From positions 45,058-109,057 of IMG/VR virus record IMGVR_UViG_3300028025_003409: a stretch of DNA of 64,000 nucleotides, one strand, 5' to 3'. The position numbers and the translations under genes are program-made. Shown piece by piece: positions 6,287 through 49,319 of this stretch. The first letter of the stretch is position 1. Each line of letters starts with the position of its first letter. The notes under the pieces were generated by a model. It was not told the DNA's origin and searched no databases. It saw only the letters and a program-made list of their open reading frames with translations. This DNA comes from a virus.

Positions 6287-7120
6287 GTGAAAAATAGAAC
6301 TGAGTTCTCTTCAGCAGCATTTCTTTTTAGAGAAAAACCATTTATCAATAGCATATCAAGTAGCAATTTAGAATATATTAAAGGCGAGTCTTATTCTTAC
6401 TATATTAATGACCAGCCAAGTAAAAAAACAAAAGACGATATTGAGTATAAACTAAATAATTATCTTTTTAGATCTGATGATTTTTGCAAAGAAGATTCTG
6501 GAGATAACTTTTTATTTGCTGGATGCTCACAAACTGTCACATTAGGGCTACCACTAGAGTTAAGTTGGGCTAACAAAGTTAATTCTAATTTTGATAAAAA
6601 TAAGTATATTAACATATCTGGAGTTGGTCTTGCCATTGATGCAATAGTTAGCAATATAGTTCACTACATTGACTTGTTTGGAAAACCTAAGGCAATTATT
6701 GCTTTATTCCCAGATCACTACAGGGTTACAGAAATAAAGCATGACACAATAACAACAGACTGGCTAGATCCAAGAGAATATGATAAAAATGTTGATAGAA
6801 TAGAAGATGCAATATTTAAAGACTATCTTTCTTTTAAAAATTTAGAAATGATATGCAAAGCAAATGGGATACCCTTGGTCTATTCTAGTTGGCAGCCACA
6901 TACTGCTAAGGTAATAAAGAAGTTAACAGAAAAGTCTTTCTTGGAAAATGGATTTGATATATATGAAAACATTGATATAGATCTAAAACTTTTTTCAAAG
7001 AAAAATAGCAAGTATCCTCATTACTGGGAATATGCAAGAGATGGTGTCCATTACGGAGAAAGAGACAATCTTATGTTTGCTCAATCATTTACCAATAAAC
7101 TAAAAGAGTTAGGTTTCTAA
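6287..7120 (+). CDS. SGNH-hydrolase-like protein, paralogue 1
   Basis: A 277-residue protein with a GTG start at 6287 and AAGGGG seven bases before it. It shares a family core with three leftward genes at 43619, 44668 and 47019: RSDDF, then FLFAGCSQT (the Ser block, GCS in place of GDS), a block near NISGVGLAIDAI, then IIALFPDHYRV, and the late ARDGVHYG carrying a possible Asp-x-x-His. SGNH enzymes remove or transfer acyl groups on glycans. Activity here is inference. It overlaps the next gene by TAATG. Confidence 0.6.
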   Translation: MKNRTEFSSAAFLFREKPFINSISSSNLEYIKGESYSYYINDQPSKKTKDDIEYKLNNYLFRSDDFCKEDSGDNFLFAGCSQTVTLGLPLELSWANKVNSNFDKNKYINISGVGLAIDAIVSNIVHYIDLFGKPKAIIALFPDHYRVTEIKHDTITTDWLDPREYDKNVDRIEDAIFKDYLSFKNLEMICKANGIPLVYSSWQPHTAKVIKKLTEKSFLENGFDIYENIDIDLKLFSKKNSKYPHYWEYARDGVHYGERDNLMFAQSFTNKLKELGF

Positions 7121-7890
7121 TGATTCAAGATATATTAGACACTATCGAGTATTCAAAACAACTTATCATATCCCCCGATATGGATGGGTTTATGACGGCA
7201 AAATTATTAGAGCGTTTTAACGGTTCGAAAATAGTAGGTTCTTATGATAAGAATCTTTTATGTCTCGCCGACGGGATCAACCCAGAGGAATGCTTGTTCG
7301 TCGATTGCGATATGAATAGGCAAGAGTATGTTTCTCTCGGAAATCATATGCGCTTGCTTGAGGACAATATGTCGGTTGAATCATTTAATCCAAATGTGCA
7401 CTTCGGCGTTTCGATATATAGCGACAAGTTTCCCTTCGCCACTGCGTTTTTAATTTCGTTCGCAACAGAGGCCCAAACCTCCGAAGAAGACCTTATCCGC
7501 ATGGCTTTCGCTGATTCTACATTACGCAATATGGAAAAATATAGCGACAACATGCGAAATTGGTCTACACGGATGGATCATCCTGCAGTTAAGTACATAG
7601 TGGACAATTCGGACATTGCAAAAAGAAATGATGCACAAGCAAGGTTTGATTATGTAGACCAATCATTTACATCTAAAAGATACGGCAAGGCAAGATATCT
7701 GGATACCCTTAATAAGGCCCTAGAAGGCCAGGGGATGAAGTTTGAACCACTTACCAGGGGTAGCAAGTACATCTGCGACAAAGTTGGCAAAGAAACCGTT
7801 ATGCGGTATAATAGAGATATCATATCTTACGCAGAGATCTTTACAGGAGAATACTCTGTTACCTATGACCAAGAGACGGAATGGAAGTAA
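7120..7890 (+). CDS. DHH-phosphoesterase-like protein (tentative)
   Basis: A 256-residue protein. The N-terminal LIISPDMDGFMTAKLL resembles the DxDG metal motif of DHH phosphoesterases (RecJ/NrnA-like), and LFVDCDMNR resembles the second Asp motif. No DHH triplet is visible, so the match is partial. The start overlaps the preceding stop. The first two thirds use many TCG and CGG-type codons, unlike the neighbours, which suggests a separate origin. Confidence 0.4.
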   Translation: MIQDILDTIEYSKQLIISPDMDGFMTAKLLERFNGSKIVGSYDKNLLCLADGINPEECLFVDCDMNRQEYVSLGNHMRLLEDNMSVESFNPNVHFGVSIYSDKFPFATAFLISFATEAQTSEEDLIRMAFADSTLRNMEKYSDNMRNWSTRMDHPAVKYIVDNSDIAKRNDAQARFDYVDQSFTSKRYGKARYLDTLNKALEGQGMKFEPLTRGSKYICDKVGKETVMRYNRDIISYAEIFTGEYSVTYDQETEWK

Positions 7891-7891
7891 T

Positions 7892-8497
7892 ATGTTTACA
7901 TGGGGAAAACACCTTATCAGAGTTGTTCATAATTTTGCTACGCCAGATGAGTTGTCTATCCTAGATGACTACTTAAAGTCACTTCCAGATTTTCATACAA
8001 AATCAGTCTCATGGCTAGATTTTATTGAAGCCGAGCATTTGCCAGAGTATAAAATTGATGATCCAAACGTAGAAAAGGTTATGCGTGAATTAAATACACG
8101 AACTAACAAATACATAACAGAAGTCTATTTCCCCGAATCAGAGTTAAGTGTCATCAGAGATAATGGAAATAGAGAGTTGGAACTTGTTAGATGGAGTGCT
8201 ATGTCACACCTTGCTCCTCATTCAGACTGGAGACTTGCAGATGGATCTCCTTATCCATTAACACTGCCACAATTTACAATTGGATCTCTTATATATATCA
8301 ATAAAGACTATGCAGGCGGAGAGATTAACTTTCCAGATTATGATTTTAAGTTAGATCCCCAACCTGGAGATTTAATTTTGTTTCCCTGCCAATATATGCA
8401 TGAAGTTCTACAAGTACTTCCACTTAAAGGAAAAGAAAAAGCAAACAGATATACCATGCCAGTATTTTACTGGTTTGACTTAGAGGAAAAGGAATAA
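7892..8497 (+). CDS. Prolyl-4-hydroxylase-like 2OG-Fe(II) oxygenase
   Basis: A 201-residue protein from ATG 7892, one base after the previous stop. It has the complete iron/2-oxoglutarate set: HSD in LAPHSDW, the distal His in YMHEV, and Arg in NRYTMPVF. The strand YINKDYAGGEINFP is the usual P4H core. P4H-type enzymes hydroxylate proline (some modify other residues) using O2 and 2-oxoglutarate. It is one of about eight such oxygenases in the window and is away from the main island. The substrate is unknown. Confidence 0.8.
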   Translation: MFTWGKHLIRVVHNFATPDELSILDDYLKSLPDFHTKSVSWLDFIEAEHLPEYKIDDPNVEKVMRELNTRTNKYITEVYFPESELSVIRDNGNRELELVRWSAMSHLAPHSDWRLADGSPYPLTLPQFTIGSLIYINKDYAGGEINFPDYDFKLDPQPGDLILFPCQYMHEVLQVLPLKGKEKANRYTMPVFYWFDLEEKE

Positions 8498-8699: not shown

Positions 8700-9464
8700 T
8701 TAGTCGACAATAGTTTCTCTAGAACCAGGTTTATTGGCTTCAAAACCAAATATAAGGTTTGCTCTAGGCCCTATAGCAGACACTTCATGCCATAGTTCTT
8801 TAGGTATAAAGATTACATCTCCTGGCTCTAGGATAAACTCTGTAGGTTCTGAATCATACGCTTCTGATGTACGCCATCTTGTTTTGCCCAAACACTGAAG
8901 GTTAAGCACATCAGCGTTATCTCTATGCCTTGTTGAAGACTTGTCCCAATCGGTTACAGAAAATACAGAATTAATGTCTGTTAGTTCGCCATCATAGATT
9001 TCTGTCAATTCTCTAATATAGAAGTCTTTGTTTCTATAGTGATCGGATGTCTTAGGCGATACTAAATTGAATTCCCCCCAAAATTGTAAAATACCTATAA
9101 CCTTCTTGCCAGCCTTCTCAAATGCTTCATTTCTAAACATTGGATCATCATCATGTGCACAGGAGTTTACGTTATTTAAGAATTCTTCCCAATATGGAAG
9201 CATGTCTTTTGGGATAGCCCCTCTTAGAACTGTTCCAGTGTTTGTTAGTACTGCGTTTAGGATCTGATTATGATATAAGTCTTTTTTGTTGCAATCCTTA
9301 CATACCGTTTCTGAAAAAATTTTTACAGACAGGTTTTCTGGATCAGGCCTACCTAGGTCTTCCCAAAATTGTTCTCTACCCATGGAGTCAGTGTTAGGCA
9401 TTGCTTTTGATTCGAACTGGAATTCACTGTCCCAGGCATTTTCTAGATTGTCCAAAATTCCCAT
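8700..9464 (-). CDS. JmjC/cupin-8-like Fe(II) oxygenase
   Basis: A 254-residue protein. The cupin core is in the C-terminal half: STRHRDNADVLNLQCLGKTR (H-x-D), then EPGDVIFIPKELWHEVSA with the distal His. The pattern fits JmjC/cupin-8 2OG oxygenases that hydroxylate protein side chains. CKDCNKKD near residue 58 is a possible extra metal site. It is convergent with the 8502 gene, with three bases between the stop codons. The closest relative in the window is the 48774 gene. Confidence 0.7.
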   Translation of the reverse strand: MGILDNLENAWDSEFQFESKAMPNTDSMGREQFWEDLGRPDPENLSVKIFSETVCKDCNKKDLYHNQILNAVLTNTGTVLRGAIPKDMLPYWEEFLNNVNSCAHDDDPMFRNEAFEKAGKKVIGILQFWGEFNLVSPKTSDHYRNKDFYIRELTEIYDGELTDINSVFSVTDWDKSSTRHRDNADVLNLQCLGKTRWRTSEAYDSEPTEFILEPGDVIFIPKELWHEVSAIGPRANLIFGFEANKPGSRETIVD

Positions 9465-37817: not shown

Positions 37818-37987
37818 TACATTATCTCCTTTTCATTTTTAAATGTCATATGACTCATATCATGAACTTCTTCAAAACTTACTTTTAATGCTTGCTTAGC
37901 AAGTTTTTTATAAGCAATACAAAGTTCTTCATATTTCTTATACATAAAGTTAAGTTCTGATAAAAGTTCTTCTTCTCTATTTCTCAT
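37817..37987 (-). CDS. Small coiled-coil protein (56 aa)
   Basis: MRNREEELLSELNFMYKKYE and LAKQALKVSFEEVHDM, charged helix. It is coupled by overlap to both the endolysin and the oxygenase upstream. Not recognised. Confidence 0.5.
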   Translation of the reverse strand: MRNREEELLSELNFMYKKYEELCIAYKKLAKQALKVSFEEVHDMSHMTFKNEKEIM

Positions 37988-38664
37988 TACTCTGTCCCAT
38001 CTGTATATATCTTGTTACTCATATTATGATACCAGTTAGGAAGGGCATATCTTGTTCCCTTTGTCACTGCAGCAACTTCATGAACATATACAAACATTGA
38101 TGGGAAAAAGATGGCACTGCCAGCACCTGGCTTGACTGTAACCCCATTCCCTACGTATGGAAATGTTATCTCTCCTCCATCAAAATCATCATTTAGATAT
38201 AGGACAACTGATAGCGTTCTACTGCTACTGCCATGGTCAGTATGCGCTGGCAAATACCCTGCTGTCTCATACTTTAATATACTCATGTTATCCTCTTTGC
38301 CCTTTAAGTTTCTAGATGCATATGGGTAAATTTCTGTTGAATAGTGCTTAAAACTAGAATCAAGTGCGCTGAATAGTCTATCGGATATTGATGAGTATTC
38401 TGCATAGTACATATCTTTTTCATTCATATCTTCTGTTCTTGGAAGCCAACGCTGTTTGCAAAAATGAAGAGTCATTGTTCCATTGTCATGATCCCAGTTG
38501 TGCCAAGGCTTTACAAAACTTTCTGCAGCGCCTGGTACTCCATTTTTAATATCGTTTTCTATCCTATTATTTAGTTCTTCTATATCTGAAATAATTTGAT
38601 ATGGATCTTCAATAAGATTTTTATAAAAAACTAAACCATCTCCTAATTTTTCATATGTAAACAT
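37987..38664 (-). CDS. Prolyl-4-hydroxylase-like 2OG-Fe(II) oxygenase
   Basis: A 225-residue protein. HTD in LPAHTDHGSS, core strand VVLYLNDDFDGGEITFP, distal His in YVHEVAAV, and Arg in GTRYALPNWY. The site is complete. It opens the modification island. Closest relatives in the window are the 39488 and 42955 genes, so the set has probably arisen by duplication or repeated capture. Confidence 0.85.
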   Translation of the reverse strand: MFTYEKLGDGLVFYKNLIEDPYQIISDIEELNNRIENDIKNGVPGAAESFVKPWHNWDHDNGTMTLHFCKQRWLPRTEDMNEKDMYYAEYSSISDRLFSALDSSFKHYSTEIYPYASRNLKGKEDNMSILKYETAGYLPAHTDHGSSSRTLSVVLYLNDDFDGGEITFPYVGNGVTVKPGAGSAIFFPSMFVYVHEVAAVTKGTRYALPNWYHNMSNKIYTDGTE

Positions 38665-39485
38665 TATTTTCCAACTTTCTTCTCTACATTGAACATTCTC
38701 TTGTCGTCTTCAGTTAATTGTGAGTCATCTCCAAAAACTGGCTCTGGCAATCCATCAACACTCTTTACATGATCTACATATAGTTCTTGCCAAATGTGAA
38801 GTCTTTGCTTTTGAAAATCAAGGAAGTCTTTATCTTGTATGTACTCGTTGCCATAAAGATTTTTCCAATGATCCTTTCTAATTAAATGAAAGAATAAAAC
38901 CTTATAGTTCTCTTCTGGATTATCCGAATTCCATGCTGGCCTGTAATGAAAGTCTAGTTCTGGTTGAACAATAATTGCATCATTTGGCTTTGTTATAAAT
39001 TCTTTATCGTGTGCAATAAAACCCCAGTCACGATTTCCACCAATATGAAGATCAACCATATAGCATCCTGGAGACCAGTCTAGGTGAACTTGCAAAAATG
39101 GCTTACGGCCTTCTGCTGTTATTTGGTGATGTGCGTATAGATAATAGCCTAACTCCACATCTTTTGTTCCTAGCAAGTCTTGTGTTCTTTTGATAGCCTT
39201 ATCAAAGAAATGTTGCGGAATAGTGATTGCATCTTCCCATTTATTCATTTGCTTTGTATATGCAATATCCTTGACATCTTTAGACTCTAGTATACCCTTT
39301 AATTCTTCAAAATCATTTTTATCAAAGAAGTTTTCTACTAGAAATGGATCAAAGAATAAAACATTCTTTCTAAACATTTCTTCAAATTTGAGGTAATGAT
39401 CTCTACTACAAAATTTCCAGTCGATCATGCTCTCATCTGGATGATTTTCCAGCATTGCAAATGTTGTATCTCTAAAATTTACCAT
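38664..39485 (-). CDS. Probable 2OG-Fe(II) oxygenase, divergent
   Basis: A 273-residue protein. LQVHLDWSPGCYMVDLHI has a His-x-Asp, and PELDFHYRPAW a possible distal His and Arg. DWGFIAHDKEF and IVQPELDF follow the usual strand order. It is larger and less canonical than the P4H-like genes. It overlaps the 37987 gene start by one base (TAATG type). Confidence 0.55.
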   Translation of the reverse strand: MVNFRDTTFAMLENHPDESMIDWKFCSRDHYLKFEEMFRKNVLFFDPFLVENFFDKNDFEELKGILESKDVKDIAYTKQMNKWEDAITIPQHFFDKAIKRTQDLLGTKDVELGYYLYAHHQITAEGRKPFLQVHLDWSPGCYMVDLHIGGNRDWGFIAHDKEFITKPNDAIIVQPELDFHYRPAWNSDNPEENYKVLFFHLIRKDHWKNLYGNEYIQDKDFLDFQKQRLHIWQELYVDHVKSVDGLPEPVFGDDSQLTEDDKRMFNVEKKVGK

Positions 39486-39487
39486 AA

Positions 39488-40033
39488 TTAGTCCAAGTCT
39501 GGATCTACATGTTCGAGTTGAGTTGTGTGCATATAAAGCAGAGTAGATCGTTCTCCACTTTCAACTGGTGTAATTCCGTGCTTCCAATCGCTGCCATCGC
39601 TAATAAAGAATACTCCAGAATATTTTTTTGGAACATACTCAAAGTTTTTTGCAGGGAAAAATATTGTTCCACCCTCAAAATTATCATTCAAATATATAAC
39701 TGTGCTGTACTCAATAAATGGTTCTGGGTCTTGGTCATCAACATGAACCAAGCCATATCCCCCTGGGCTCCATGTAGATCCAAAACACTTGAATGTTTTT
39801 ATTTCATTTGGCTCTTCTGGATTTAGTTTTTGCAATAACTCATTTGACTTTAGAGCATATTTTTTTTGTATTGCTAAAACCCGACTGTTGTATGGATATC
39901 CCGTTCCACCAAACCTAGTTTTATAATATTCTGGATAAGGATTTACCTCAGATGGTGTAGACATTTCTTCTAATAGTATCGCTGCATCTTCTGCAGATAT
40001 AAAATCTTCAACAACTACTGGAACTGTAAGCAT
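39488..40033 (-). CDS. Prolyl-4-hydroxylase-like 2OG-Fe(II) oxygenase
   Basis: A 181-residue protein. HVD in GLVHVDDQD, core VIYLNDNFEGGTIFFP, distal His in DWKHGITPV, and Arg in GERSTLLYM. A complete site. GYPYNSRVLAIQKKY may belong to the lid. It has a GGAGG ribosome site. Confidence 0.82.
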   Translation of the reverse strand: MLTVPVVVEDFISAEDAAILLEEMSTPSEVNPYPEYYKTRFGGTGYPYNSRVLAIQKKYALKSNELLQKLNPEEPNEIKTFKCFGSTWSPGGYGLVHVDDQDPEPFIEYSTVIYLNDNFEGGTIFFPAKNFEYVPKKYSGVFFISDGSDWKHGITPVESGERSTLLYMHTTQLEHVDPDLD

Positions 40034-40059
40034 TTTTTTCCTCCTAACATATTATACCA

Positions 40060-40902
40060 CTACTCTATACTTCGTACATTGCTGATAAATCTTGTTTCAT
40101 TCATCTCGTCGAGATCCATAGCGGTGTTATACGATGTGTCATCATGAGAAAATGGAAGCCATGACAGTTTGCTAAAATCAAAGCCTGTCAAACTATATAG
40201 TTTATCTACACATGAAAGACCATCAAAAAAGGCATTGGACTCTTTAACAAATAGACTTGTCACTAGGTCATAGTTATGCTTTAAAGAAAAAGGAACATAG
40301 TCTACTCCACTAATGCCACTATCAAGTCTACGGCACCATGCGCTGGCAATTGCAAAAATAGGAACATCTTTACTGCAAGCATACATTGAATAAACTTCTT
40401 CTAATCCATAATGCTTTAGTCTAGACAAGTTTGGAAAATCTTTAAACATTTCAGTTGTCATAAAAATAAAATCTTGAGATATCCAATTAGTCATGGTTGT
40501 TGTGTTAAGTGCTGCTTTAAAATAGTTAGGATAAAACTTATATTGTGGAACAAAATTTATTAAAGCATTTCCACTAAGTACGCAAGGTCTTCCTCCATGC
40601 CCCATAACCAATTCTAAATCCCAATTTTTTTCAAACATGATTGCACCATCAATATACATAAAATAGTCTTTGTCACATTCTAATAAAGAATTGTTTAGAT
40701 ATGTAAAGGGAGACTCTAGAGAGTCCCAGTAAACATGGCTATATGATACATCTGGAAACTTTTCTTCTCTATCTATGTTAACCTGGTCATACACTGAAAC
40801 TACTATATTGTGATGACCACTCTGATTATTAATTAATGAAGATACTGCTTCTGGAAGTTCTTTACTTTTGTATCCATACACATGTACAAATATGCTCTTC
40901 AT
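40060..40902 (-). CDS. Glycosyltransferase, GT60 (Skp1 GlcNAc-transferase)-like
   Basis: 280 residues from the ATG at 40902. KSIFVHVYGYKSKELPEAVS, then HNIVVSVYDQVN and YFMYIDGAIMFEKNWD resemble the GT-A core of the GT60 family, where YIDxD-like residues bind metal and sugar nucleotide. In Dictyostelium, GT60 Gnt1 adds GlcNAc to hydroxyproline made by a P4H. Here the gene sits directly among P4H-like genes, which supports that pairing (inference from context). The family match is by eye. Confidence 0.55.
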   Translation of the reverse strand: MKSIFVHVYGYKSKELPEAVSSLINNQSGHHNIVVSVYDQVNIDREEKFPDVSYSHVYWDSLESPFTYLNNSLLECDKDYFMYIDGAIMFEKNWDLELVMGHGGRPCVLSGNALINFVPQYKFYPNYFKAALNTTTMTNWISQDFIFMTTEMFKDFPNLSRLKHYGLEEVYSMYACSKDVPIFAIASAWCRRLDSGISGVDYVPFSLKHNYDLVTSLFVKESNAFFDGLSCVDKLYSLTGFDFSKLSWLPFSHDDTSYNTAMDLDEMNETRFISNVRSIE

Positions 40903-40903
40903 T

Positions 40904-41560
40904 TTATAGTAACGGAATCCAGTGTTGCTCAATAGTACCTGGATTATCAATCAAAGACTGAAGAGGCTCAATGTCGTATGCAAGTGTGATTCTTGCTCCA
41001 TTCCAGTTCCAGTCTCCCATGGCATGAGGATGACCCATTTCAGAAATAACTAGCCTATTATTTTTATTAACATTATCTACAACCCTACTAGTTCCATCAT
41101 TAATTTGGTAATGAGTTATAGATGGCTCTGCTGCGATGCAATAGTATCCATGAAAATGTGGAGCAAATGGTCCGCCATGATCATGCCAGTTTAACTTACC
41201 AACCTCTGAGTGATTTATGTTAAACCATCCCTGGACCATATACTTTTGTTCTTCAAAATTAATTCCATAATATTCACAGGCTTCACGAGTTGCTTCTGAA
41301 ATTCCTTTAAAAACATTATAGATTTCATTATTTGAAAACTGAAAAACATTGTACTCTCTCCACTTAACAGTAGAAAGACTTCCAGATTCTACCCACGCTT
41401 CTTCCTGTCCTAATTCATCTACACCACGCAGTTTTGCTGATTGGATTAATTCATATTTTTCTGTTAAGAATTTTGAAAGTTTATCCAGGTCATTGTCTAG
41501 GTAGCGCTCAAAAAATTTATGAGGCTTAGTTGAAACCTGAACTGTCTTGCTTGCTATCAT
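40904..41560 (-). CDS. 2OG-Fe(II) oxygenase (TIGR02466-like)
   Basis: A 218-residue protein. LNWHDHGGPFAPHFHGYYCI holds the metal His/Asp group, ISEMGHPHAMGDWN the distal His, and ARITLAYDI the 2-oxoglutarate Arg. It ends right before the glycosyltransferase start. The closest style is the putative 2OG oxygenases often next to tail genes in marine phages. Confidence 0.7.
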   Translation of the reverse strand: MIASKTVQVSTKPHKFFERYLDNDLDKLSKFLTEKYELIQSAKLRGVDELGQEEAWVESGSLSTVKWREYNVFQFSNNEIYNVFKGISEATREACEYYGINFEEQKYMVQGWFNINHSEVGKLNWHDHGGPFAPHFHGYYCIAAEPSITHYQINDGTSRVVDNVNKNNRLVISEMGHPHAMGDWNWNGARITLAYDIEPLQSLIDNPGTIEQHWIPLL

Positions 41561-41589
41561 TTTTTCCCCTTTGTTATATAACTATTATA

Positions 41590-42330
41590 CTACAGATCTC
41601 TTTTGGTGTATTGCTTTTTGCGCCAGGCAAATTTTCTATAATGTGCAGTAATGTGAGACCTTCTGTTTTCAGATAGTAGTTCATGCTTGTCTAACATTTC
41701 CTGTGATTGATCAATGACCAGGTTCCAATTATCTCTCTTGATTGGAATCATCTGAGCAATTGGAGTTCCCTTTGGTATTACCCCTTCAAAATTTCTTTTA
41801 ATAAACAGCGGAAGGAAAGCAGGCAACCCCCATATATCAGAGTCAACAATACCAGATGGAGTCCAGAAAGGCAGGTCTGGTCTGTTTAGTGGCATTGTCA
41901 TTAGTAAAGAGTAGTCTGGTGGAGTTTCATAAAACCAATTCATTTTAACACCAAAATGTATTGGATGAACATCATCGGGTATAGCCATATCTACATATGG
42001 CCTTTTGTCAATAAGCATTAGGTCAGAGTCCCAAGATAGTCTTGGCTTACCACTCTTAGAAAGTTCTACTGTAAGATTTCCCTCTAGACAATACATGTAC
42101 CCAAGAGACATTGCGTCCTGAAATGGCAGACACAGTTTTGTAGAAACATTAGATCCGTCTCCACCCCTATCATTAATTGGATCGAGATTTTCTAAATCAT
42201 TTGAAACATAGTGCTTTGCAAGATCACGATACCATTGAGGTATTTTTTTATATGCAGGCTCTGGTGGTAAATAGTCTGGGTGATTTCCAGCAACAAAAAT
42301 AATATCAATTTCTTTATCTGTATTGCTCAT
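41590..42330 (-). CDS. DUF6065-like protein
   Basis: A 246-residue protein. KKIPQWYRDLAKHYVSND, KLCLPFQDAMSLGYMYCLEG, NRPDLPFWTPSGIVDSDIWG, and FEGVIPKGTPIAQMIPI are the conserved-looking blocks of this phage and cyanobacterial family. Function unknown. It is repeatedly found next to 2OG oxygenases and glycan genes. Overlaps the next gene by 17 bases. Confidence 0.55.
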   Translation of the reverse strand: MSNTDKEIDIIFVAGNHPDYLPPEPAYKKIPQWYRDLAKHYVSNDLENLDPINDRGGDGSNVSTKLCLPFQDAMSLGYMYCLEGNLTVELSKSGKPRLSWDSDLMLIDKRPYVDMAIPDDVHPIHFGVKMNWFYETPPDYSLLMTMPLNRPDLPFWTPSGIVDSDIWGLPAFLPLFIKRNFEGVIPKGTPIAQMIPIKRDNWNLVIDQSQEMLDKHELLSENRRSHITAHYRKFAWRKKQYTKRDL

Positions 42331-42955
42331 TTATTTTTTCCAAGTCTTTGTCGTTTAGATTTAGCGTTATGTCATACATTGGTGTTCCTATTTCAATTAT
42401 ACCATAATTAGAATTTTTCATATGAGCACCGAACCTTTTTATCTTAAAGTCAATAAAAGGCACATCTATAAAATCTAAAATAATATCATTTTCTTTTGTA
42501 TTAATTATTGATTTCTCAGAATAAAAGCAGTCTCCTGCTGGACTAATCTCTATCATAGAATTCAGATCTATTATCCATGGCATATAAAATTTATATGTTG
42601 GCTCGAAAGAATCTGGGTCGTCAATTTTATTTTCAGATGGATAGAACTGTCTTTGGTGACACTTATCTAAGGCATAAAGATCGTCACTTTTTATATCTAC
42701 CCAAATTTCAGCATGGGTTTTTTGTCTAAGTTTTACAGTATTATTGTTTATTGACAATATTTCTGGTCTTGGGTATAGATTTGACACATATCTATTGACT
42801 GGTTTTACTATACTATTTCTATATTTTTCTTCAATTAGAGAGTATTTTGACCATTTTGCTGGGACCCTTGATCCCGTAAGTATTTGACTAAAAGAAAGTT
42901 CAGAACTATTTAGCCAAAATTCACTTCCACGCATTCCATTTTTAACCTCAATCAT
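42314..42955 (-). CDS. Hypothetical protein, beta-rich (213 aa)
   Basis: TVKLRQKTHAEIWVDIKSDD, FYPSENKIDDP, and RFGAHMKNSNYGIIEIGTPM. The layout is similar to the preceding DUF6065-like protein (an N-terminal unit, a substrate-like beta domain), so the two may be distant paralogues or a complex. It is coupled by one-base overlap to the P4H-like gene upstream. Confidence 0.45.
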   Translation of the reverse strand: MIEVKNGMRGSEFWLNSSELSFSQILTGSRVPAKWSKYSLIEEKYRNSIVKPVNRYVSNLYPRPEILSINNNTVKLRQKTHAEIWVDIKSDDLYALDKCHQRQFYPSENKIDDPDSFEPTYKFYMPWIIDLNSMIEISPAGDCFYSEKSIINTKENDIILDFIDVPFIDFKIKRFGAHMKNSNYGIIEIGTPMYDITLNLNDKDLEKINEQYR

Positions 42956-43626
42956 TATTTACGCATAACGATCTCATTAAAACTATCTTCTTGGTACTCA
43001 TATCCACCATGGTTTGGTTCTTCTAAAAATTCCGCACCGTATTCTCTTACATCAAATCCGTGGAAGAATGGCAGTGTGTATCTTCCGACACTACCCTCAT
43101 TAGGGAAAATGCTAGTGACTTGGTGCATATAAAATGATGGGAACATGCAGAGACTTCCTGCAGAAGGTTTAAACCCATAGTCAAAGTCTTCAAAATATAG
43201 TTCTCCTCCATCAAAATCATCAGTTAGATAAACCAAAGAACTAATTGGTAGCCCTAGCCTTAACTTGTCATCTTCTGTTGGCATGCCTTCGTGACCATCT
43301 CTATGTCCTTGTAGGCCACCGCTAGTCCATCTAACTATTTCAATATCTCTTTTCCAGTTTAGCCTGGTCACCCTTAGTTCATGGGATGCAGCGTATTCTC
43401 CAATAATAAAGGTATATGCTTTTTTTTCTAACTCTATCATTAAGTCTTTAACTTCTTTATCTTTTATGCCAACAAAGGGAAACACTATTCTTCCATACTG
43501 ATCTATCACATCTGAATACTTATCTTTGGATGCTATCTTTTCTGCATAAGATATAATTAAATCTGCTTCATCTTTAGTTACAAAATTTTTCTTTTCATGA
43601 ATTTTACTTACATCCCAATTAAACAT
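42955..43626 (-). CDS. Prolyl-4-hydroxylase-like 2OG-Fe(II) oxygenase
   Basis: A 223-residue protein. HRD in LQGHRDGHEG, core LVYLTDDFDGGELYFED, distal His in FYMHQVTS, Arg in GRYTLPFFHG. The site is complete. It is close to the 7892 protein in core and length. Confidence 0.85.
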   Translation of the reverse strand: MFNWDVSKIHEKKNFVTKDEADLIISYAEKIASKDKYSDVIDQYGRIVFPFVGIKDKEVKDLMIELEKKAYTFIIGEYAASHELRVTRLNWKRDIEIVRWTSGGLQGHRDGHEGMPTEDDKLRLGLPISSLVYLTDDFDGGELYFEDFDYGFKPSAGSLCMFPSFYMHQVTSIFPNEGSVGRYTLPFFHGFDVREYGAEFLEEPNHGGYEYQEDSFNEIVMRK

Positions 43627-44539
43627 TTTTCACATCCTTTTCTTTATATATTGAGGAAAACGCATCAAAAAATCTATCAGCAATTAGTTTATGATATCCA
43701 ATTCCTGGATGATTTCTATCTCTTGCCATATACCAATATGGGTCATTTTCTGTATTTTCTTCAATAGTGTATGATTCACGACTTGGTACATCTATATAAT
43801 TATTAAAGCCAAGTTCTTCTGACATCTTTTTATAATCTTCAGACCATGTGGACCAAATAAGGTCTATACCTAAGGCCCTACAAACAAATTCTAAATTATG
43901 AATGTAGTCTGTTGCAAATAAAATACTTTCTTCAATCACATAACTTTCCATAAAATGTTTTACTCCATTATTTTTTTTGTAATTTTCATGGTGTGGTTGA
44001 GTTATGGTTACCTTAATAAAACTTCTGCTATTATTTTGATCTTGATACTTTATTGTTCTTTCAAACCCTGGGAATAATACAAAAAGATAATCTGGCTTTC
44101 CATATTTTTCTATATAGATTCTTAGGTTTTTGCAAATTTGAAAAACATTACTACCACCAAGGGCTATGTTTCTATGCTCTACATTTTTATTTGAAACTTT
44201 TGATATCATCTTTATAACTTTTGCTGGCCATGCATAGTCCGATGGTAGGCCTGCACCATGAGTAAATGAACAACCAGAAAATAAAATATTTAAATTTTCG
44301 CCACTAAGTTTTTCAAAATGCTTCGTCCTAAATCCATCGAGATTAATCTTATAATCAAAGTATGGTCCGTCAGAAATAACTTCATGGTCGTAGAGTCTAA
44401 ACTTTACCATATAGTCATCTTCATCAATTTTTATGGATTGCTCTAGATCAGAATTTACTTTACTGAAATTTTCTCCAGTTTGGTATTCAATCTCTCTCCT
44501 ATCCAAAGCACTATCAAGTAGGGAAAAATTATCAGACAA
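43619..44539 (-). CDS. SGNH-hydrolase-like protein, paralogue 2
   Basis: A 306-residue protein with family blocks: GFRTKHFEKL, NILFSGCSFTHGAGL (GCS with GxG), RNIALGGSNVFQICKN (Gly/Asn block), YLFVLFPGFERT, and ARDRNHPGIGYHKL (Asp-x-x-His). It keeps the full SGNH order. The start is TTG at 44539 with AAGGA before it, although the same frame is open to 44669. Likely acts on an acyl or glycan ester (inference). Confidence 0.65.
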   Translation of the reverse strand: MSDNFSLLDSALDRREIEYQTGENFSKVNSDLEQSIKIDEDDYMVKFRLYDHEVISDGPYFDYKINLDGFRTKHFEKLSGENLNILFSGCSFTHGAGLPSDYAWPAKVIKMISKVSNKNVEHRNIALGGSNVFQICKNLRIYIEKYGKPDYLFVLFPGFERTIKYQDQNNSRSFIKVTITQPHHENYKKNNGVKHFMESYVIEESILFATDYIHNLEFVCRALGIDLIWSTWSEDYKKMSEELGFNNYIDVPSRESYTIEENTENDPYWYMARDRNHPGIGYHKLIADRFFDAFSSIYKEKDVKNV

Positions 44540-44591
44540 AAGTTCATCCTTGATAAATCTAAAAGATGAATAATCGTAGAGTGAGTTTGGG

Positions 44592-44660
44592 TTAATAGAT
44601 GAAATCTTCTTTTCCTGCTTTCTTGTATATTTTCCTGTAGCGCACTCTAAAGTACACCAT
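44592..44660 (-). CDS. Possible basic micro-protein (22 aa)
   Basis: MVYFRVRYRKIYKKAGKEDF plus two residues, with AGG just before the ATG. It resembles the 25-residue peptide at 46945 in charge and ending (IY). The alternative is that this stretch is the N-terminus of the SGNH gene read in another frame. Confidence 0.25.
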   Translation of the reverse strand: MVYFRVRYRKIYKKAGKEDFIY

Positions 44661-44667
44661 CCTAAGC

Positions 44668-45516
44668 CTATTTATTATTTTTTGCATAATCTATTATAGC
44701 ATTAATTAGATTAGTTGACCATACCTTATGAGCGTTTAGCCCTTGGTGACCATCTCTTTTAATGACCTCGTTTTGCTTATATTCAAAAAATTCAGGGTGA
44801 TAATTAAATTCAATAAAGTTTTTAGAAAAGTTTAATTCTGACAATACAGAGTTTTCTAATCTACTCCATGTGCTCCAAAATAATTTTATTTGATTTATTC
44901 TACAATATTCTTCAAACATATTTATATATAAAATAAAATCTATCATTGAGTCCATATATAGTTTTCTGTTTTCTTTTATTTCTAAATGATTAAGATCTTT
45001 CCATTCAATTGTATAAGAGTTTTCGCTATCCAACCACTTAAAAACTCTTGCAACATCTGGGAAAAGTACTACGAAGGCATCTGGCTTTCCAAATTCTTTA
45101 ACATAAAGCAAACAGTTCATTATTATTTTTTGAAATCCAAAGTTGTCAATAGATAGATTATAGAATCCGTCCAGACTTAGTTCATCCTTAATAGCATTAT
45201 ACGTCATTCCAGTCCAACTATCTTCTATGTTGCCACCAATTCCCTCACCTTCAGAGCACCCAGCAAAAACAAACCTATTTTTTTTACTATCTGTTTTTTT
45301 TACAAAATCGTCTGACCTAAAACCCAGACTGTTGTAATGATAGGAAACAGAGCCATCATCTTCTGGAACTGGGATGTTGTTCATTTTAAACATAGGAAAT
45401 TCTTTTGGATGAATTGCAAATGTAGCGTTATGGTGCTCTGAACCTTCAAGGTCAGAGAAAAAGAGAGAGTTACTATTTGTATTGAGTATTGCTTTTACTA
45501 TAGAGTCTTTATCCAT
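44668..45516 (-). CDS. SGNH-hydrolase-like protein, paralogue 3
   Basis: A 282-residue protein. LGFRSDDFVKK, NRFVFAGCSEGEGIGG (GCS, GxG), LSIDNFGFQKIIMN, FVVLFPDVARVF, and KRDGHQGLNAHKVW (Asp-Gly-His). It overlaps the carbamoyltransferase by eight bases. Same family as 6287, 43619 and 47019. Confidence 0.65.
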   Translation of the reverse strand: MDKDSIVKAILNTNSNSLFFSDLEGSEHHNATFAIHPKEFPMFKMNNIPVPEDDGSVSYHYNSLGFRSDDFVKKTDSKKNRFVFAGCSEGEGIGGNIEDSWTGMTYNAIKDELSLDGFYNLSIDNFGFQKIIMNCLLYVKEFGKPDAFVVLFPDVARVFKWLDSENSYTIEWKDLNHLEIKENRKLYMDSMIDFILYINMFEEYCRINQIKLFWSTWSRLENSVLSELNFSKNFIEFNYHPEFFEYKQNEVIKRDGHQGLNAHKVWSTNLINAIIDYAKNNK

Positions 45517-46945
45517 TTTCTGATCCTATAATCTTTGTTCCATATGTTTTTTCCCATAGTTCAATATCTTTTTTATCATTCAGCAACGGCTGCCCTTTAA
45601 TATTTAAACTTGTGTTTAGTAGTATAGGTACACCTGTTTGTAGGTAAAACTTATTAATTGCCCGATATAGACCTGGGTGCTGTTCTCTTGTTACAGTTTG
45701 TACTCTTGAAGTTCCATCTTGATGAACCACAGAAGGTATTTTTTCTGGCTTTAAACATTTAACTGTGTACTGCATATAAGGGCTTTCAAAGTCCATATCA
45801 AACCACTTGTGTGCATGGTCAGCCAATACAACTGGTGCAAAAGGTCTAAACAGTTCTCTTTGCTTAATTCTATTAACCTTATCCTTGATATTAGGATCTC
45901 TTGGATCAGCGAGGATTGACCTATTCCCTAATGCTCTTGGACCATACTCTGCTCTTCCTGATGCTACTGCTACGATTCCGTCTTTTAGTATACCGTCCAC
46001 AATTTGCTGAACAGGATACTCTCCTCCAAGATCATAACCAAGATATGGGGTCTTCCACCCAAGGTGTTTTCCATACAGTGCTGCTGCTGCACCCAAAGAA
46101 CTGCCAGCATCTCCTGGATTAGGCATAATCCAAATCATGTCAAAGATATTCCAAAGTAGCGTATTTGCTGATGAGTTAAGTGCACAACCACCCATAAATA
46201 CCAAATTCTTTTTACCAGTAATGGAATAGGCCATATGCATAAAATCATTTAGCCTTTGTTGATAGACAACCTGAACTGCTGCAGCAATATCAAATCTGTC
46301 TTGCTCTGTAATCTCCATTCCCCAGTCATTGATTCCTTTATGAAAGTTGTACTTTTGGTTTGAATATGACGGGAAGTATTCATCGACCTCTTTATAATAT
46401 CTTTTCCAGTCCCCGTAAGCAGCCATTCCCATCATAATATACTCTTCTTGGTTGGGCATTAAGCCTATTAACTGTGTAAAGGCAGAATAGAATAGACCGA
46501 AACTTACTGGATAGTTTTGCTTATACTTTAATTTTATTTTATCTCCCTCTCCAACCCAAATGGTTGAAGTGTTATATTCTCCTATTGCATCTAGTACAAC
46601 AATAACGGCATTGTCGAAGGCGCTTGTATAGTATCCTGCTGCTGCATGAGAATAGTGATGACTAAAAGATTTTCTTGGTATTCCATCTATATTAAACCTT
46701 GGCTTCCATTCCCCAGATCCACCCCTTAAAGCCAGTCTGGAGGCCTTTAGGAGAGGCTTTTCATAATAGGCTATGTGATCTGGTCTACCATACTGTAAAG
46801 CATCTTTTATTAAACTATCATTCACATACCAATCATTTTTTTTCTTGCTGTATCTTTCTGCATGTCCAGCAAAAAGTATTTCTCCATCTTTGATTAAAGA
46901 TACGGACGCATCGTGAGAGGTTTCGTTTATTCCAAGAATAATCAT
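45509..46945 (-). CDS. NodU/CmcH-type carbamoyltransferase
   Basis: A 478-residue protein covering both domains: an N-terminal Kae1-like fold with SHHYSHAAAGYYTSAF (metal His) and GGCALNSSANTLL, and a C-terminal part with SGRAEYGPRALGNRSILADP and REL-FRPFAPVVL. Such enzymes make carbamoyl-adenylate from carbamoyl phosphate and ATP and move the carbamoyl onto a hydroxyl of a sugar or antibiotic. In a glycan-modification island, a sugar acceptor is likely (inference). Confidence 0.92.
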   Translation of the reverse strand: MIILGINETSHDASVSLIKDGEILFAGHAERYSKKKNDWYVNDSLIKDALQYGRPDHIAYYEKPLLKASRLALRGGSGEWKPRFNIDGIPRKSFSHHYSHAAAGYYTSAFDNAVIVVLDAIGEYNTSTIWVGEGDKIKLKYKQNYPVSFGLFYSAFTQLIGLMPNQEEYIMMGMAAYGDWKRYYKEVDEYFPSYSNQKYNFHKGINDWGMEITEQDRFDIAAAVQVVYQQRLNDFMHMAYSITGKKNLVFMGGCALNSSANTLLWNIFDMIWIMPNPGDAGSSLGAAAALYGKHLGWKTPYLGYDLGGEYPVQQIVDGILKDGIVAVASGRAEYGPRALGNRSILADPRDPNIKDKVNRIKQRELFRPFAPVVLADHAHKWFDMDFESPYMQYTVKCLKPEKIPSVVHQDGTSRVQTVTREQHPGLYRAINKFYLQTGVPILLNTSLNIKGQPLLNDKKDIELWEKTYGTKIIGSENG

Positions 46946-47022
46946 CAGTATATATACCTCTTTGGTTTTTTATTAAATCTTCTTAATCTATACTTTAAGA
47001 TTATTTTTTTTATTATGCTCAT
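46945..47022 (-). CDS. Basic micro-protein (25 aa)
   Basis: MSIIKKIILKYRLRRFNKKP plus five residues. The ATG overlaps the stop of the SGNH gene (ATGA) and the stop overlaps the start of the carbamoyltransferase gene (TGATG). The double coupling suggests it is translated, perhaps only to link the two genes. Confidence 0.45.
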   Translation of the reverse strand: MSIIKKIILKYRLRRFNKKPKRYIY

Positions 47023-47801
47023 TGTTCTACCCTATCTAAAAAATGTTTTGCAAAATACATACTGGTGATAACTCCTGGATGCACAGAGTCTGCAGCGCTA
47101 ACTAAAAAGTCTTTATCGTATCCGTCTAAATCATCTTTATTAAGGCTCATTAGAAAATCCTCTTCTCTTTCAAGGTCCATATTACCATAGTTTGAAAACC
47201 CTAAAGTAGAAAATATGTGACTTGTTTCATCATCCCAAGAGGATGTATATAGTTTTATTCCTAATTGACTGCAGAATATCTCAAAAGATCTATAGTACGC
47301 TTGGCAAGAATATATCATGGAGTGCTCAGACATAGTGCTAGAACTATCTAAATCATTTTGGTGGCGCATTTTAATAACAAACAAATCTCCATCTGTAGTT
47401 GGCCAATTTGTTCTAAATAAGTCTGGAAGCAATAAGAATATGTAATCTGGTTTTCCAAATAAATTAATGTATTTATAAATATTATCGATTATTTTTTGCA
47501 CACTTCCTCCTGGATAGGAAAGCGTGAATGGTTTAGATGTGTCAAACTTTTTTGACATGCCTTTGTGTACGTGGTACTGCCATGAATAACCTTCTGGTAG
47601 ATACTCACCAAATGCCATTGAGCAACCAGCGTACAAAATATTTGTTTTGCTTTTGTCTAATACATCAAAGTCTTCAGATCTATGGCCAAAATTATTCATC
47701 CTATATTTTATTTTTGGTATAGTTTTTTTGTTAATCTTATTAATTCTTTCTTTAAAAACATCAGTCACGCTGTACTCTTTATTAAAAGATATGTTTTGCA
47801 A
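47019..47801 (-). CDS. SGNH-hydrolase-like protein, paralogue 4
   Basis: At least 260 residues. FGHRSEDFDVL, NILYAGCSMAFGEYL (GCS), LSYPGGSVQKIIDN, YIFLLLPDLFRT, and SAADSVHPGVITSMYF (Asp-x-x-His). The nominal start is TTG 47801. The same frame continues without ATG/GTG/TTG to an ATA at 47888 that overlaps the protease stop codon, and the extra 29 residues would give the N-terminal length seen in the paralogues. Confidence 0.6.
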   Translation of the reverse strand: MQNISFNKEYSVTDVFKERINKINKKTIPKIKYRMNNFGHRSEDFDVLDKSKTNILYAGCSMAFGEYLPEGYSWQYHVHKGMSKKFDTSKPFTLSYPGGSVQKIIDNIYKYINLFGKPDYIFLLLPDLFRTNWPTTDGDLFVIKMRHQNDLDSSSTMSEHSMIYSCQAYYRSFEIFCSQLGIKLYTSSWDDETSHIFSTLGFSNYGNMDLEREEDFLMSLNKDDLDGYDKDFLVSAADSVHPGVITSMYFAKHFLDRVEQ

Positions 47802-47884
47802 AGAAGGCTCTATAGTGTTTGAAAACTCAACCTTTGTGAAAAGTTCTTTATTATTGTAGAAATATTCTGGATTTCTTATTAGGT

Positions 47885-48772
47885 TTATTTTTTTACTCCT
47901 AACTTTTTAACTATTTTTTTATTTTTGGCTGCTATTTTTTTGACAATAACTTTGGGCTTAGTAGAAACTGAATTTGCTGCAACAACAGCAGTAGTTGTTT
48001 CTTCTATTTTTGTAGACTTTATAGGTTCTAAAATTAAAGGATTTGCCAATAAAAATTCTTTTGCTTGATCTATCAGATATAAATGATGATGGATTAGAGC
48101 ATTTCTTGCTAAAGAAATTGGTTGACTATCTGATGAACAGAATGGCTTATTTGATGAAACTGTTGCTCCTAAATAGTATACATAATCATTATCAAAAACA
48201 TAGGAAGGTCCTCCAGAGTCTCCACTACATACTTCAGATAAATTATTTATTGAATAAAACTCAGTATATCCATCATGCCCGTTCATATACGCAGGAGGAT
48301 TTTTAACAAACCTAAATGCTGCACGAGATGGAGTAGAGCCATAAGAATATCTATCTATTAATCCATGCCCATAAAAATAAACAATGCTTTCTGACTCTGT
48401 AAACCTTTTGATATCCTCATAAGATGCTATCTTGATATTATTTTTTATTGGCATATCTTTATCAACAACAATTGCCATAATGTCATTTTCTCTGTTATTA
48501 ACATAGTCTTTGATTGGAACAAAACTTGATATTACCCTATACATAACTTTATTATTTTTGCCTTCTTCATAAAAACTAATCAAAGTTGAACCAGTTTTGA
48601 CTGAGCAATGTTGTGCTAAGATCAAGATTCTTGTAGAGATTGGTGCTGCAGAGCAGCCAGAGTCTGTTTTTGCAACAAGAGTGTTATCTGATACATCCTC
48701 TCCTTTATATATTGCATTTGCAGAAGGTGTAATAAAAGTAAAGAATAGCAATATCGATATAAATTTTTTCAT
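47885..48772 (-). CDS. Secreted trypsin-like serine protease
   Basis: 295 residues from the ATG at 48772 (AGGAG before it). Signal peptide MKKFISILLFFTFITPSANA. The triad is visible: His in ILILAQHCS, Asp in NNRENDIMAIVV, Ser in CSGDSGGPSYVF. Cys pairs typical of the S1 family are present. The C-terminus is Thr/Lys-rich (VIVKKIAAKNKKIVKKLGVK) and may bind the envelope. A phage-encoded, exported S1 protease is unusual. It could process surface proteins of the host or virion. Confidence 0.82.
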   Translation of the reverse strand: MKKFISILLFFTFITPSANAIYKGEDVSDNTLVAKTDSGCSAAPISTRILILAQHCSVKTGSTLISFYEEGKNNKVMYRVISSFVPIKDYVNNRENDIMAIVVDKDMPIKNNIKIASYEDIKRFTESESIVYFYGHGLIDRYSYGSTPSRAAFRFVKNPPAYMNGHDGYTEFYSINNLSEVCSGDSGGPSYVFDNDYVYYLGATVSSNKPFCSSDSQPISLARNALIHHHLYLIDQAKEFLLANPLILEPIKSTKIEETTTAVVAANSVSTKPKVIVKKIAAKNKKIVKKLGVKK

Positions 48773-48773
48773 A

Positions 48774-49319
48774 TTACTCCTGTGATAACGATCCAAAGCC
48801 CATAGATACGGCGCATCTAGGTGAGTTTGCAGACACTTCGTGCCAACGACTTGGTGGACAATAAATTATATCTCCTTGGTTAAGTGTCTCTACAATGTCT
48901 ATATCTGTTTCATTTTTGTAAATTGTCCATGTACTGCTACCTTGTAGTTGCCAAAAAATAACATGCTCAGGTTCATGGTGCTTTCCACCATAAGATCCTT
49001 CTTGTGTTGTAAGACTTATGTATATCTGATGAGCATAATCTTCTTCATCTAAATCTTCAAAGTGAGGAGATTTGGCAAAAACAGAATATAGTTTATCTAC
49101 AAGTAGTCTAACTTCTGGAATTCTGGTTGCTTCAATAAGTCTAAATCCATAGTCTTTATAAATTTTACTTCCAATTTGACCACCATTTAATACATCATAA
49201 TTTAATAATTCAAGAACTGTTTGCCAAGAAACATCTGGAAAATTAGAGCCACGAATAACAAAAGGGGTATTGTTTTTAAACTTACTTATGTTTTGATCAT
49301 TAATTAAAGTACTAAACAC
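48774..49319 (-). CDS. JmjC/cupin-like oxygenase
   Basis: A 181-residue protein. GGKHHEPEHVIFWQLQGSST (His-x-x-Glu-x-x-His region), then LNQGDIIYCPPSRWHEVSAN with the distal His, as in JmjC/cupin-8 enzymes (protein arginyl or histidyl hydroxylases). It is closest in style to the 8700 gene. It lies upstream of the secreted protease and two bases apart. Confidence 0.65.
   Translation of the reverse strand: MFSTLINDQNISKFKNNTPFVIRGSNFPDVSWQTVLELLNYDVLNGGQIGSKIYKDYGFRLIEATRIPEVRLLVDKLYSVFAKSPHFEDLDEEDYAHQIYISLTTQEGSYGGKHHEPEHVIFWQLQGSSTWTIYKNETDIDIVETLNQGDIIYCPPSRWHEVSANSPRCAVSMGFGSLSQE

What the first reader, a model, noticed from the sequence alone, without database searches (positions are those of the whole stretch)
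37987..49319. A modification island: at least four oxygenases, a glycosyltransferase, a carbamoyltransferase and three SGNH-like enzymes in one leftward run
In 11 kb, adjoining or overlapping genes encode P4H-like 2OG oxygenases (37987, 39488, 42955), two other oxygenases (38664, 40904), a JmjC/cupin (48774), a GT60-like glycosyltransferase (40060), a NodU-type carbamoyltransferase (45509) and SGNH-like proteins (43619, 44668, 47019), with an exported protease (47885). The motifs are seen directly. The idea that they form one pathway that hydroxylates, glycosylates, carbamoylates or acyl-edits a protein or glycan surface is inference.
Basis: partly seen in the sequence, partly recalled or inferred. 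Interest (0 to 1): 0.85.

Follow-up and report, generated by a model that had tools for sequence, protein, structure and literature searches.

The report
Phage cassette modifying proline-rich fibre proteins
A freshwater phage carries a conserved block of oxygenase, sugar-transferase and carbamoyl-transferase genes; in related phages such oxygenases sit directly behind a fibre-like protein made of proline/aromatic repeats and are missing when the repeats lack proline, so these poorly understood phage oxygenases probably hydroxylate the phage's own fibre-like proteins.

Summary
It is a conserved cassette: in 60 loci with gene A (42314), gene B (41590) follows 60/60 times, the GT60-like transferase 59/60, P4H-like oxygenases 55/60, and the carbamoyltransferase is nearby in 32/60. 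The key evidence lies outside the given coordinates. In related phages the same cassette sits directly behind a FnIII-(aromatic/proline repeat)-Hint protein beside tail-fibre genes. A separate scan seeded only with that protein's N-terminus found P4H-like oxygenases directly downstream in 39/42 loci with proline repeats and 0/9 without. In one syntenic slot among close relatives it is 14/15 versus 0/5, while gene B stays with proline-free FGA repeats. I infer that the oxygenases hydroxylate repeat prolines and the other enzymes decorate them. For the window's own phage the target is unsettled: its cassette is remote from its two repeat proteins, and four relatives keep the cassette although their repeats have little proline. 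DNA modification is not supported. Best reading: a modification cassette for fibre proteins, working like Skp1 hydroxylation-glycosylation; biochemistry untested.

The parts
37987..38664 (-). P4H-like 2OG-Fe(II) oxygenase (second oxygenase of the core cassette)
   Evidence: PF13640 E 4e-15; orthologous to the oxygenase behind the FTPFG-Hint gene in lineage 2 (clade 99/97)
38664..39485 (-). Oxygenase-like accessory protein, also in L086/L087
   Evidence: phrog_2954 E 1e-4; layouts
39488..40033 (-). P4H-like 2OG oxygenase (first oxygenase of the core cassette)
   Evidence: phrog_2297 E 4e-14; clade 100/99 with lineage-2 oxygenases behind the FTPFG-Hint gene
40060..40950 (-). GT60-like (GlcNAc-type) glycosyltransferase
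   Evidence: PF11397 19.7 bits in the window protein, 18/44 relatives match PF11397; within five cassette genes of A in 59/60 loci
40904..41560 (-). Gene C: putative 2OG/cupin oxygenase with WHDHG...FHGYY...PHAMGDW...R motif
   Evidence: phrog_2696; alignment A10
41590..42330 (-). Gene B: DUF6065/phrog_7084 protein with dUTPase-like fold, function unknown
   Evidence: phrog_7084 E 2e-31; AlphaFold pLDDT 88; Foldseek top hits nearly all dUTPase/dCTP deaminase but weak, best E 4e-3
42314..42955 (-). Gene A: uncharacterised conserved first gene of the cassette, remote homolog of B
   Evidence: AlphaFold pLDDT 95.7; hhalign A vs B P-value 5.7e-6, probability 85%
42955..43626 (-). Extra P4H-like 2OG oxygenase, pairs with window 7742-8497 in the tree
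   Evidence: PF13640 28 bits
43619..44539 (-). SGNH-like protein 1
   Evidence: paralog alignment; weak GDSL profile match
44668..45516 (-). SGNH-like protein 2
45509..46945 (-). NodU/TobZ-type carbamoyltransferase
   Evidence: PF16861, PF02543; phrog_1601 E 2e-105
47019..47801 (-). SGNH-like protein 3
   Evidence: SGNH + carbamoyltransferase pair also in L035, L086, L087 and others
47885..48796 (-). Exported trypsin-like protease, probably not part of the pathway
   Evidence: PF00089; relatives have a subtilisin-like exported ORF at this place
48774..49319 (-). JmjC/cupin protein, peripheral
   Evidence: PF08007 34 bits; also in L086/L087
1172..2440 (-). Candidate substrate: YSFTP/TAYTFTP repeat protein with C-terminal Hint domain
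   Evidence: sequence; homologs lie directly upstream of the cassette in lineage 2
6287..7120 (+). Fourth SGNH-like paralog, near the repeat protein
   Evidence: SGNH profile match
7742..8497 (+). P4H-like oxygenase about 5 kb from the repeat protein
   Evidence: profile match, tree

Best explanation
The island is a mobile, conserved protein-modification cassette of aquatic phages. P4H-like 2OG oxygenases hydroxylate prolines in the low-complexity aromatic/proline repeats of phage-encoded FnIII-repeat(-Hint) proteins that are probably virion fibres. The GT60-like enzyme then adds a sugar to the new hydroxyl group, and in the window's lineage the NodU-type carbamoyltransferase and SGNH-like proteins decorate further. 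Genes A and B are non-oxygenase partners (dUTPase-like fold); B accompanies the repeat proteins even when these lack proline, perhaps as a substrate-binding or folding factor. Shown: the genes, the conserved order, the location behind repeat proteins in relatives, and the association of oxygenases with proline repeats. Inferred: the reactions, the virion location, and that the window's remote copy acts on the window phage's own YSFTP repeat proteins.
For: Order A-B-(B/C)-GT-OX-OX-(SGNH)-carbamoyltransferase conserved in about 60 loci. In lineage 2 (TerL 56% to the window phage) the cassette is directly behind the FTPFG-Hint protein, next to tail-fibre and portal genes. Scan seeded only with the FnIII N-terminus: oxygenase within 6 kb in 39/42 proline-repeat loci vs 0/9 others (Fisher 7e-8, not corrected for relatedness); proline density vs oxygenase number rho 0.71, n = 53. 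Same syntenic slot among close relatives: 14/15 vs 0/5, p 4e-4; strict subset 10/11 vs 0/5, p 1.4e-3; the FGA-repeat loci keep B. Orthology: island oxygenases 39488 and 37987 group with the lineage-2 ones (100/99, 99/97); the window phage's B copy behind its second Hint protein groups with the lineage-2 B that precedes A (100/98). All eight contigs of at least 98 kb checked in the window's lineage have both gene A and a Hint-repeat protein. No thymidylate synthase-type gene found.
Against: In the window's lineage the cassette is far from the repeat proteins, and G002, G003, G006 and G025 keep the cassette although their Hint proteins are mostly FGA repeats with little proline. L225 has a few prolines and no oxygenase in its slot. 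The slot and repeat classes were defined after seeing the data and the loci are related. Virion location of the repeat protein is inferred from gene neighbourhood. The GT's DXD-like motif is poorly conserved. No biochemistry.
Confidence: 0.5

Rival explanations
1. In the window's lineage the cassette modifies another target, such as the PEPT-rich PA14 protein at 50635-52323, a host protein or a different virion protein, while only slot-located oxygenases of relatives act on fibre repeats.
For: The late island lies near the PA14/PEPT protein; the cassette is kept with FGA-type Hint proteins in G002, G003, G006, G025.
Against: The PEPT-rich linker is present with and without the cassette. Island oxygenases are orthologs of the lineage-2 slot enzymes.
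Confidence: 0.25
2. The cassette builds or edits a cell-surface glycan or small molecule (NodU, SGNH and GT acting on sugars), with the oxygenases acting on the same molecule.
For: NodU/TobZ carbamoyltransferases act on sugars and antibiotics (family knowledge); SGNH + carbamoyltransferase pairs recur. In unmodified contigs of PMC8670742 carbamoyltransferases lie beside glycosyltransferases.
Against: No sugar-nucleotide biosynthesis genes were seen among the island ORFs. Oxygenases track proline in a neighbouring protein.
Confidence: 0.13
3. DNA base hypermodification, with the carbamoyltransferase acting on hydroxymethylcytosine as described in PMC8670742.
For: A phage NodU-type enzyme makes 5-carbamoyloxymethylcytosine. 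B has a dUTPase-like fold.
Against: No PF00303 match in the 109 kb record, while co-occurrence with thymidylate synthase marks the DNA system. No TET/JBP match, though that search had no positive control. The cassette lies with structural or lysis genes.
Confidence: 0.05
4. Unlinked auxiliary metabolic genes; the oxygenases tune host 2-oxoglutarate or nitrogen metabolism or repair DNA.
For: This is the published proposal for cyanophage 2OG oxygenases (PMC3037559).
Against: Fixed gene order across about 60 loci and the link to proline repeats are unexpected for metabolic genes.
Confidence: 0.07

Closest known systems
Skp1 prolyl hydroxylation-glycosylation pathway of Dictyostelium and Toxoplasma (PhyA P4H, then glycosylation of the hydroxyproline)
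   Same: P4H-like 2OG oxygenase plus GT60-like transferase, both cytoplasmic-type (PMC3515798; GT60 assignment of Gnt1 from general knowledge)
   Different: Phage-encoded, several oxygenases, extra families A, B, C, SGNH and carbamoyltransferase; proposed substrate is a repeat fibre protein, not Skp1
5-hydroxymethylcytosine carbamoyltransferase system (PMC8670742)
   Same: Phage-borne NodU-type carbamoyltransferase
   Different: That system has a thymidylate synthase-type hydroxymethylase; none found here
2OG-Fe(II) oxygenases of cyanophages (PMC3037559)
   Same: Multiple phage oxygenases; carbamoyltransferase also present in some
   Different: Published proposals are nitrogen metabolism or DNA repair; here they track proline repeats in a neighbouring protein
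Hydroxyproline-rich proteins such as plant extensins and mussel adhesives (general knowledge)
   Same: Proline/aromatic low-complexity repeats with prolyl hydroxylases
   Different: Phage proteins with FnIII and Hint domains; hydroxylation not shown

Membership tests
Skp1-type P4H + GT60 pathway | P4H-type 2OG oxygenase with HxD...H...R site | tested here: met
   PF13640 matches and aligned H, D, H, R positions
Skp1-type P4H + GT60 pathway | GT60 transferase with DXD motif | tested here: inconclusive
   18/44 members match PF11397 but the window protein is below cut-off and DXD is variable
Skp1-type P4H + GT60 pathway | hydroxyproline-linked sugar on the substrate | not testable with these tools
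   needs mass spectrometry
NodU/TobZ O-carbamoyltransferase | both Pfam domains PF02543 and PF16861 | tested here: met
DNA carbamoylation system (PMC8670742) | thymidylate synthase-type hydroxymethylase in the genome | tested here: not met
   no PF00303 match in the 109 kb record, which may be incomplete
dUTPase superfamily (genes A and B) | fold similarity | tested here: inconclusive
   B: almost all of the top 50 are dUTPase/dCTP deaminase but best E 4e-3; A weaker
dUTPase superfamily (genes A and B) | significant sequence match to the family | tested here: not met
   1 of 61 members at E 0.075 to PF00692; no PDB sequence hit to a dUTPase
SGNH/GDSL hydrolase | catalytic Ser block and C-terminal D(x)xH | tested here: inconclusive
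   GxS and D..H conserved, profile match E 0.012 at the Ser block only
Virion glycosylation by phage glycosyltransferase | sugar found on virion proteins | not testable with these tools
   no virions

The most novel reading that the evidence does not exclude
A phage-encoded hydroxyproline system: phages build fibre proteins from proline/aromatic repeats and carry a matching, swappable set of prolyl hydroxylases, sugar and carbamoyl transferases and two new protein families (A, B) that mature them, explaining why many aquatic phages carry numerous 2OG oxygenases.
Probability: 0.45. Interest if true: 0.88.

Novelty: new variant of a known kind. Interest (0 to 1): 0.74.

Why it matters
Phage 2OG-Fe(II) oxygenases have been attributed to nitrogen metabolism or DNA repair (PMC3037559). 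A tie between oxygenase genes and the proline content of an adjacent fibre-like protein gives a concrete substrate prediction that one co-expression and mass-spectrometry experiment can test. If right, hydroxyproline-type fibre maturation exists in phages, with possible consequences for receptor binding and fibre durability, and the A and B families gain a context.

Tried and rejected
PEPT-rich linker of 50635 as the cassette's specific substrate: present with and without the cassette. DNA modification: no PF00303; the PF12851 search had no positive control and is not counted as evidence of absence. Named phages: no relatives of A, C, GT, one SGNH protein or the repeat protein N-terminus; B has relatives in haloarchaeal Hafunaviridae beside adhesin genes, but those adhesins show glycine-rich, not aromatic/proline, sequence. 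Bacterial genome scan with B gave mostly solo genes in chromosomes, uninformative; two short contigs in a Chitinophagaceae MAG (L185, L188) repeat the repeat-protein + B arrangement, with oxygenases in L185. A first profile for the repeat protein was too diverse to scan. The first association test mixes lineages, so I repeated it inside one syntenic slot. L216 was dropped from the final slot count because its contig ends inside the slot. Paper searches for DUF6065 or hydroxylated phage fibres found nothing on point.
Full report
What the window is. The window is bases 45058-109057 of a 109 kb virus record. Its terminase is about 55% identical to Streptomyces phages such as Francob and Karimac and up to 99% identical to many IMG/VR contigs, so it is a tailed phage related to actinophages.

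Check of the finding. All listed ORFs exist at the stated coordinates in one minus-strand run. Pfam and PHROG support the P4H-like oxygenases 37987 and 42955, the carbamoyltransferase, the JmjC-type and trypsin-like proteins. 39488 is supported by phage oxygenase profiles. The GT60 call is below cut-off alone but supported by 18 of 44 relatives. The SGNH call is weak but plausible.

A conserved cassette. Relatives fetched by terminase and by B show the order A, B, B or C, GT, OX, OX, SGNH (optional), carbamoyltransferase, between an HslV-like gene and a CHAP lysin gene. Of 60 loci with A, B is next in 60, GT follows within five cassette genes in 59, an oxygenase follows GT in 55, and the carbamoyltransferase is present in 32; loci cut by contig ends are included. 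The fuller set with JmjC, protease, SGNH and carbamoyltransferase ahead of A recurs in L086 and L087. Other relatives lack the cassette and have only a subtilisin-like exported ORF and the lysin there.

A second location names a partner. In a family-level related lineage (terminase 56%, portal 49-51% to the window phage) the cassette sits directly behind a tail-fibre-like gene and a FnIII-(FTPFG)n-Hint protein, just ahead of a LamG fibre, the portal, protease and capsid genes. The window phage encodes two proteins of this kind with YSFTP repeats: window 1172-2440 and record about 37.8-39.1 kb (L003:18280-19647). The second is followed directly by another B gene. In the B tree this copy groups with the lineage-2 B that precedes A (100/98), while the island B groups with the B that follows A (98/100). 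The island oxygenases 39488 and 37987 are orthologs of the lineage-2 oxygenases. The simplest reading is one ancestral cluster that was split in the window's lineage; that is inference.

Independent test. I scanned IMG/VR with the FnIII N-terminus alone. After removing near-duplicates, 39 of 42 loci whose protein has proline plus aromatic repeats have a P4H-like oxygenase within 6 kb downstream, against 0 of 9 without such repeats (Fisher p 7e-8, relatedness not corrected). Repeat types and neighbours co-vary: PFFPPFF with OX-B-OX-B-OX-OX, PPYF with OX-B, FTPFG with C-B-A-B-C-GT-OX-OX, VFGFSP with C-C-OX, and FGAFGA (no proline) with B only. Because lineages were mixed, I restricted the test to one slot between the repeat protein and the LamG/portal genes in phages close to the window phage: 14/15 proline-type loci have an oxygenase in the slot (the exception is the window phage itself, whose oxygenases lie elsewhere), against 0/5 FGA-type loci; p 4e-4. 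A stricter subset gives 10/11 against 0/5, p 1.4e-3. The FGA repeats keep phenylalanine and glycine but lose proline, which points to proline as the oxidised residue. Classes were set after seeing the data.

Limits. Whole-record searches show that the cassette persists elsewhere in G002, G003, G006 and G025 although their Hint proteins are mostly FGA repeats; G025 also has six PF13640 matches outside the slot. So in the window's lineage the island enzymes may have another or an additional target. Five shorter contigs with the cassette show no Hint gene, but they are fragments.

Folds of A and B. AlphaFold models are confident (96 and 88 pLDDT). B resembles dUTPase/dCTP deaminase weakly but consistently, A less so, and the two families are remote homologs. 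Sequence searches do not place them in the dUTPase family. Since B stays beside FGA repeats, it is unlikely to be needed only for proline chemistry.

Alternatives. DNA carbamoylation (PMC8670742) lacks its marker gene here. Metabolic tuning of 2-oxoglutarate (PMC3037559) does not predict the gene order or the link to repeats. Glycan editing remains possible for the carbamoyltransferase and SGNH part.

Verdict. A real, conserved and, as far as the searches here show, undescribed phage modification cassette. Prolyl hydroxylation of fibre-like repeat proteins is the best-supported function for the oxygenases as a class; sugar and carbamoyl additions, and the exact target in this phage, are inference.

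Noticed in passing
window 1172-2440; L003:18280-19647: Repeat proteins end in a Hint (hedgehog/intein-like) domain with CIDEDT...VVHN motif, suggesting self-cleavage or ligation of a phage fibre protein; some relatives lack the leading Cys or the whole domain.
   Followed up: partly
window 47885-48796 versus L013:16459-17430, L023:17242-18219, L021:16747-17619: The exported protease position holds an S1 trypsin-like gene here but a subtilisin-like ORF in relatives: unrelated protease types at one locus.
   Followed up: partly
window 50635-52323: PA14-domain protein with a long PEPT/SPEP low-complexity linker that varies between relatives.
   Followed up: partly
L165 (HF2), L166 (HJTV-1): Haloarchaeal Hafunaviridae carry a B (DUF6065-like) gene next to adhesin and tail-fibre genes, in opposite orientation.
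   Followed up: partly
L003:15359-17392 and relatives: A 677-aa gene that looks like a ribonucleotide reductase sits between the Hint/B genes and the LamG fibre gene in the window's lineage, inside a structural region.
   Followed up: no
G025:C1:87672-88334; G011:C1:59066-59707: Gene A copies whose match spans an in-frame stop, possibly decaying or frameshifted.
   Followed up: no
window 8700-9464: A second JmjC/cupin-like gene near the fibre region, opposite strand to the adjacent oxygenase 7742-8497.
   Followed up: no
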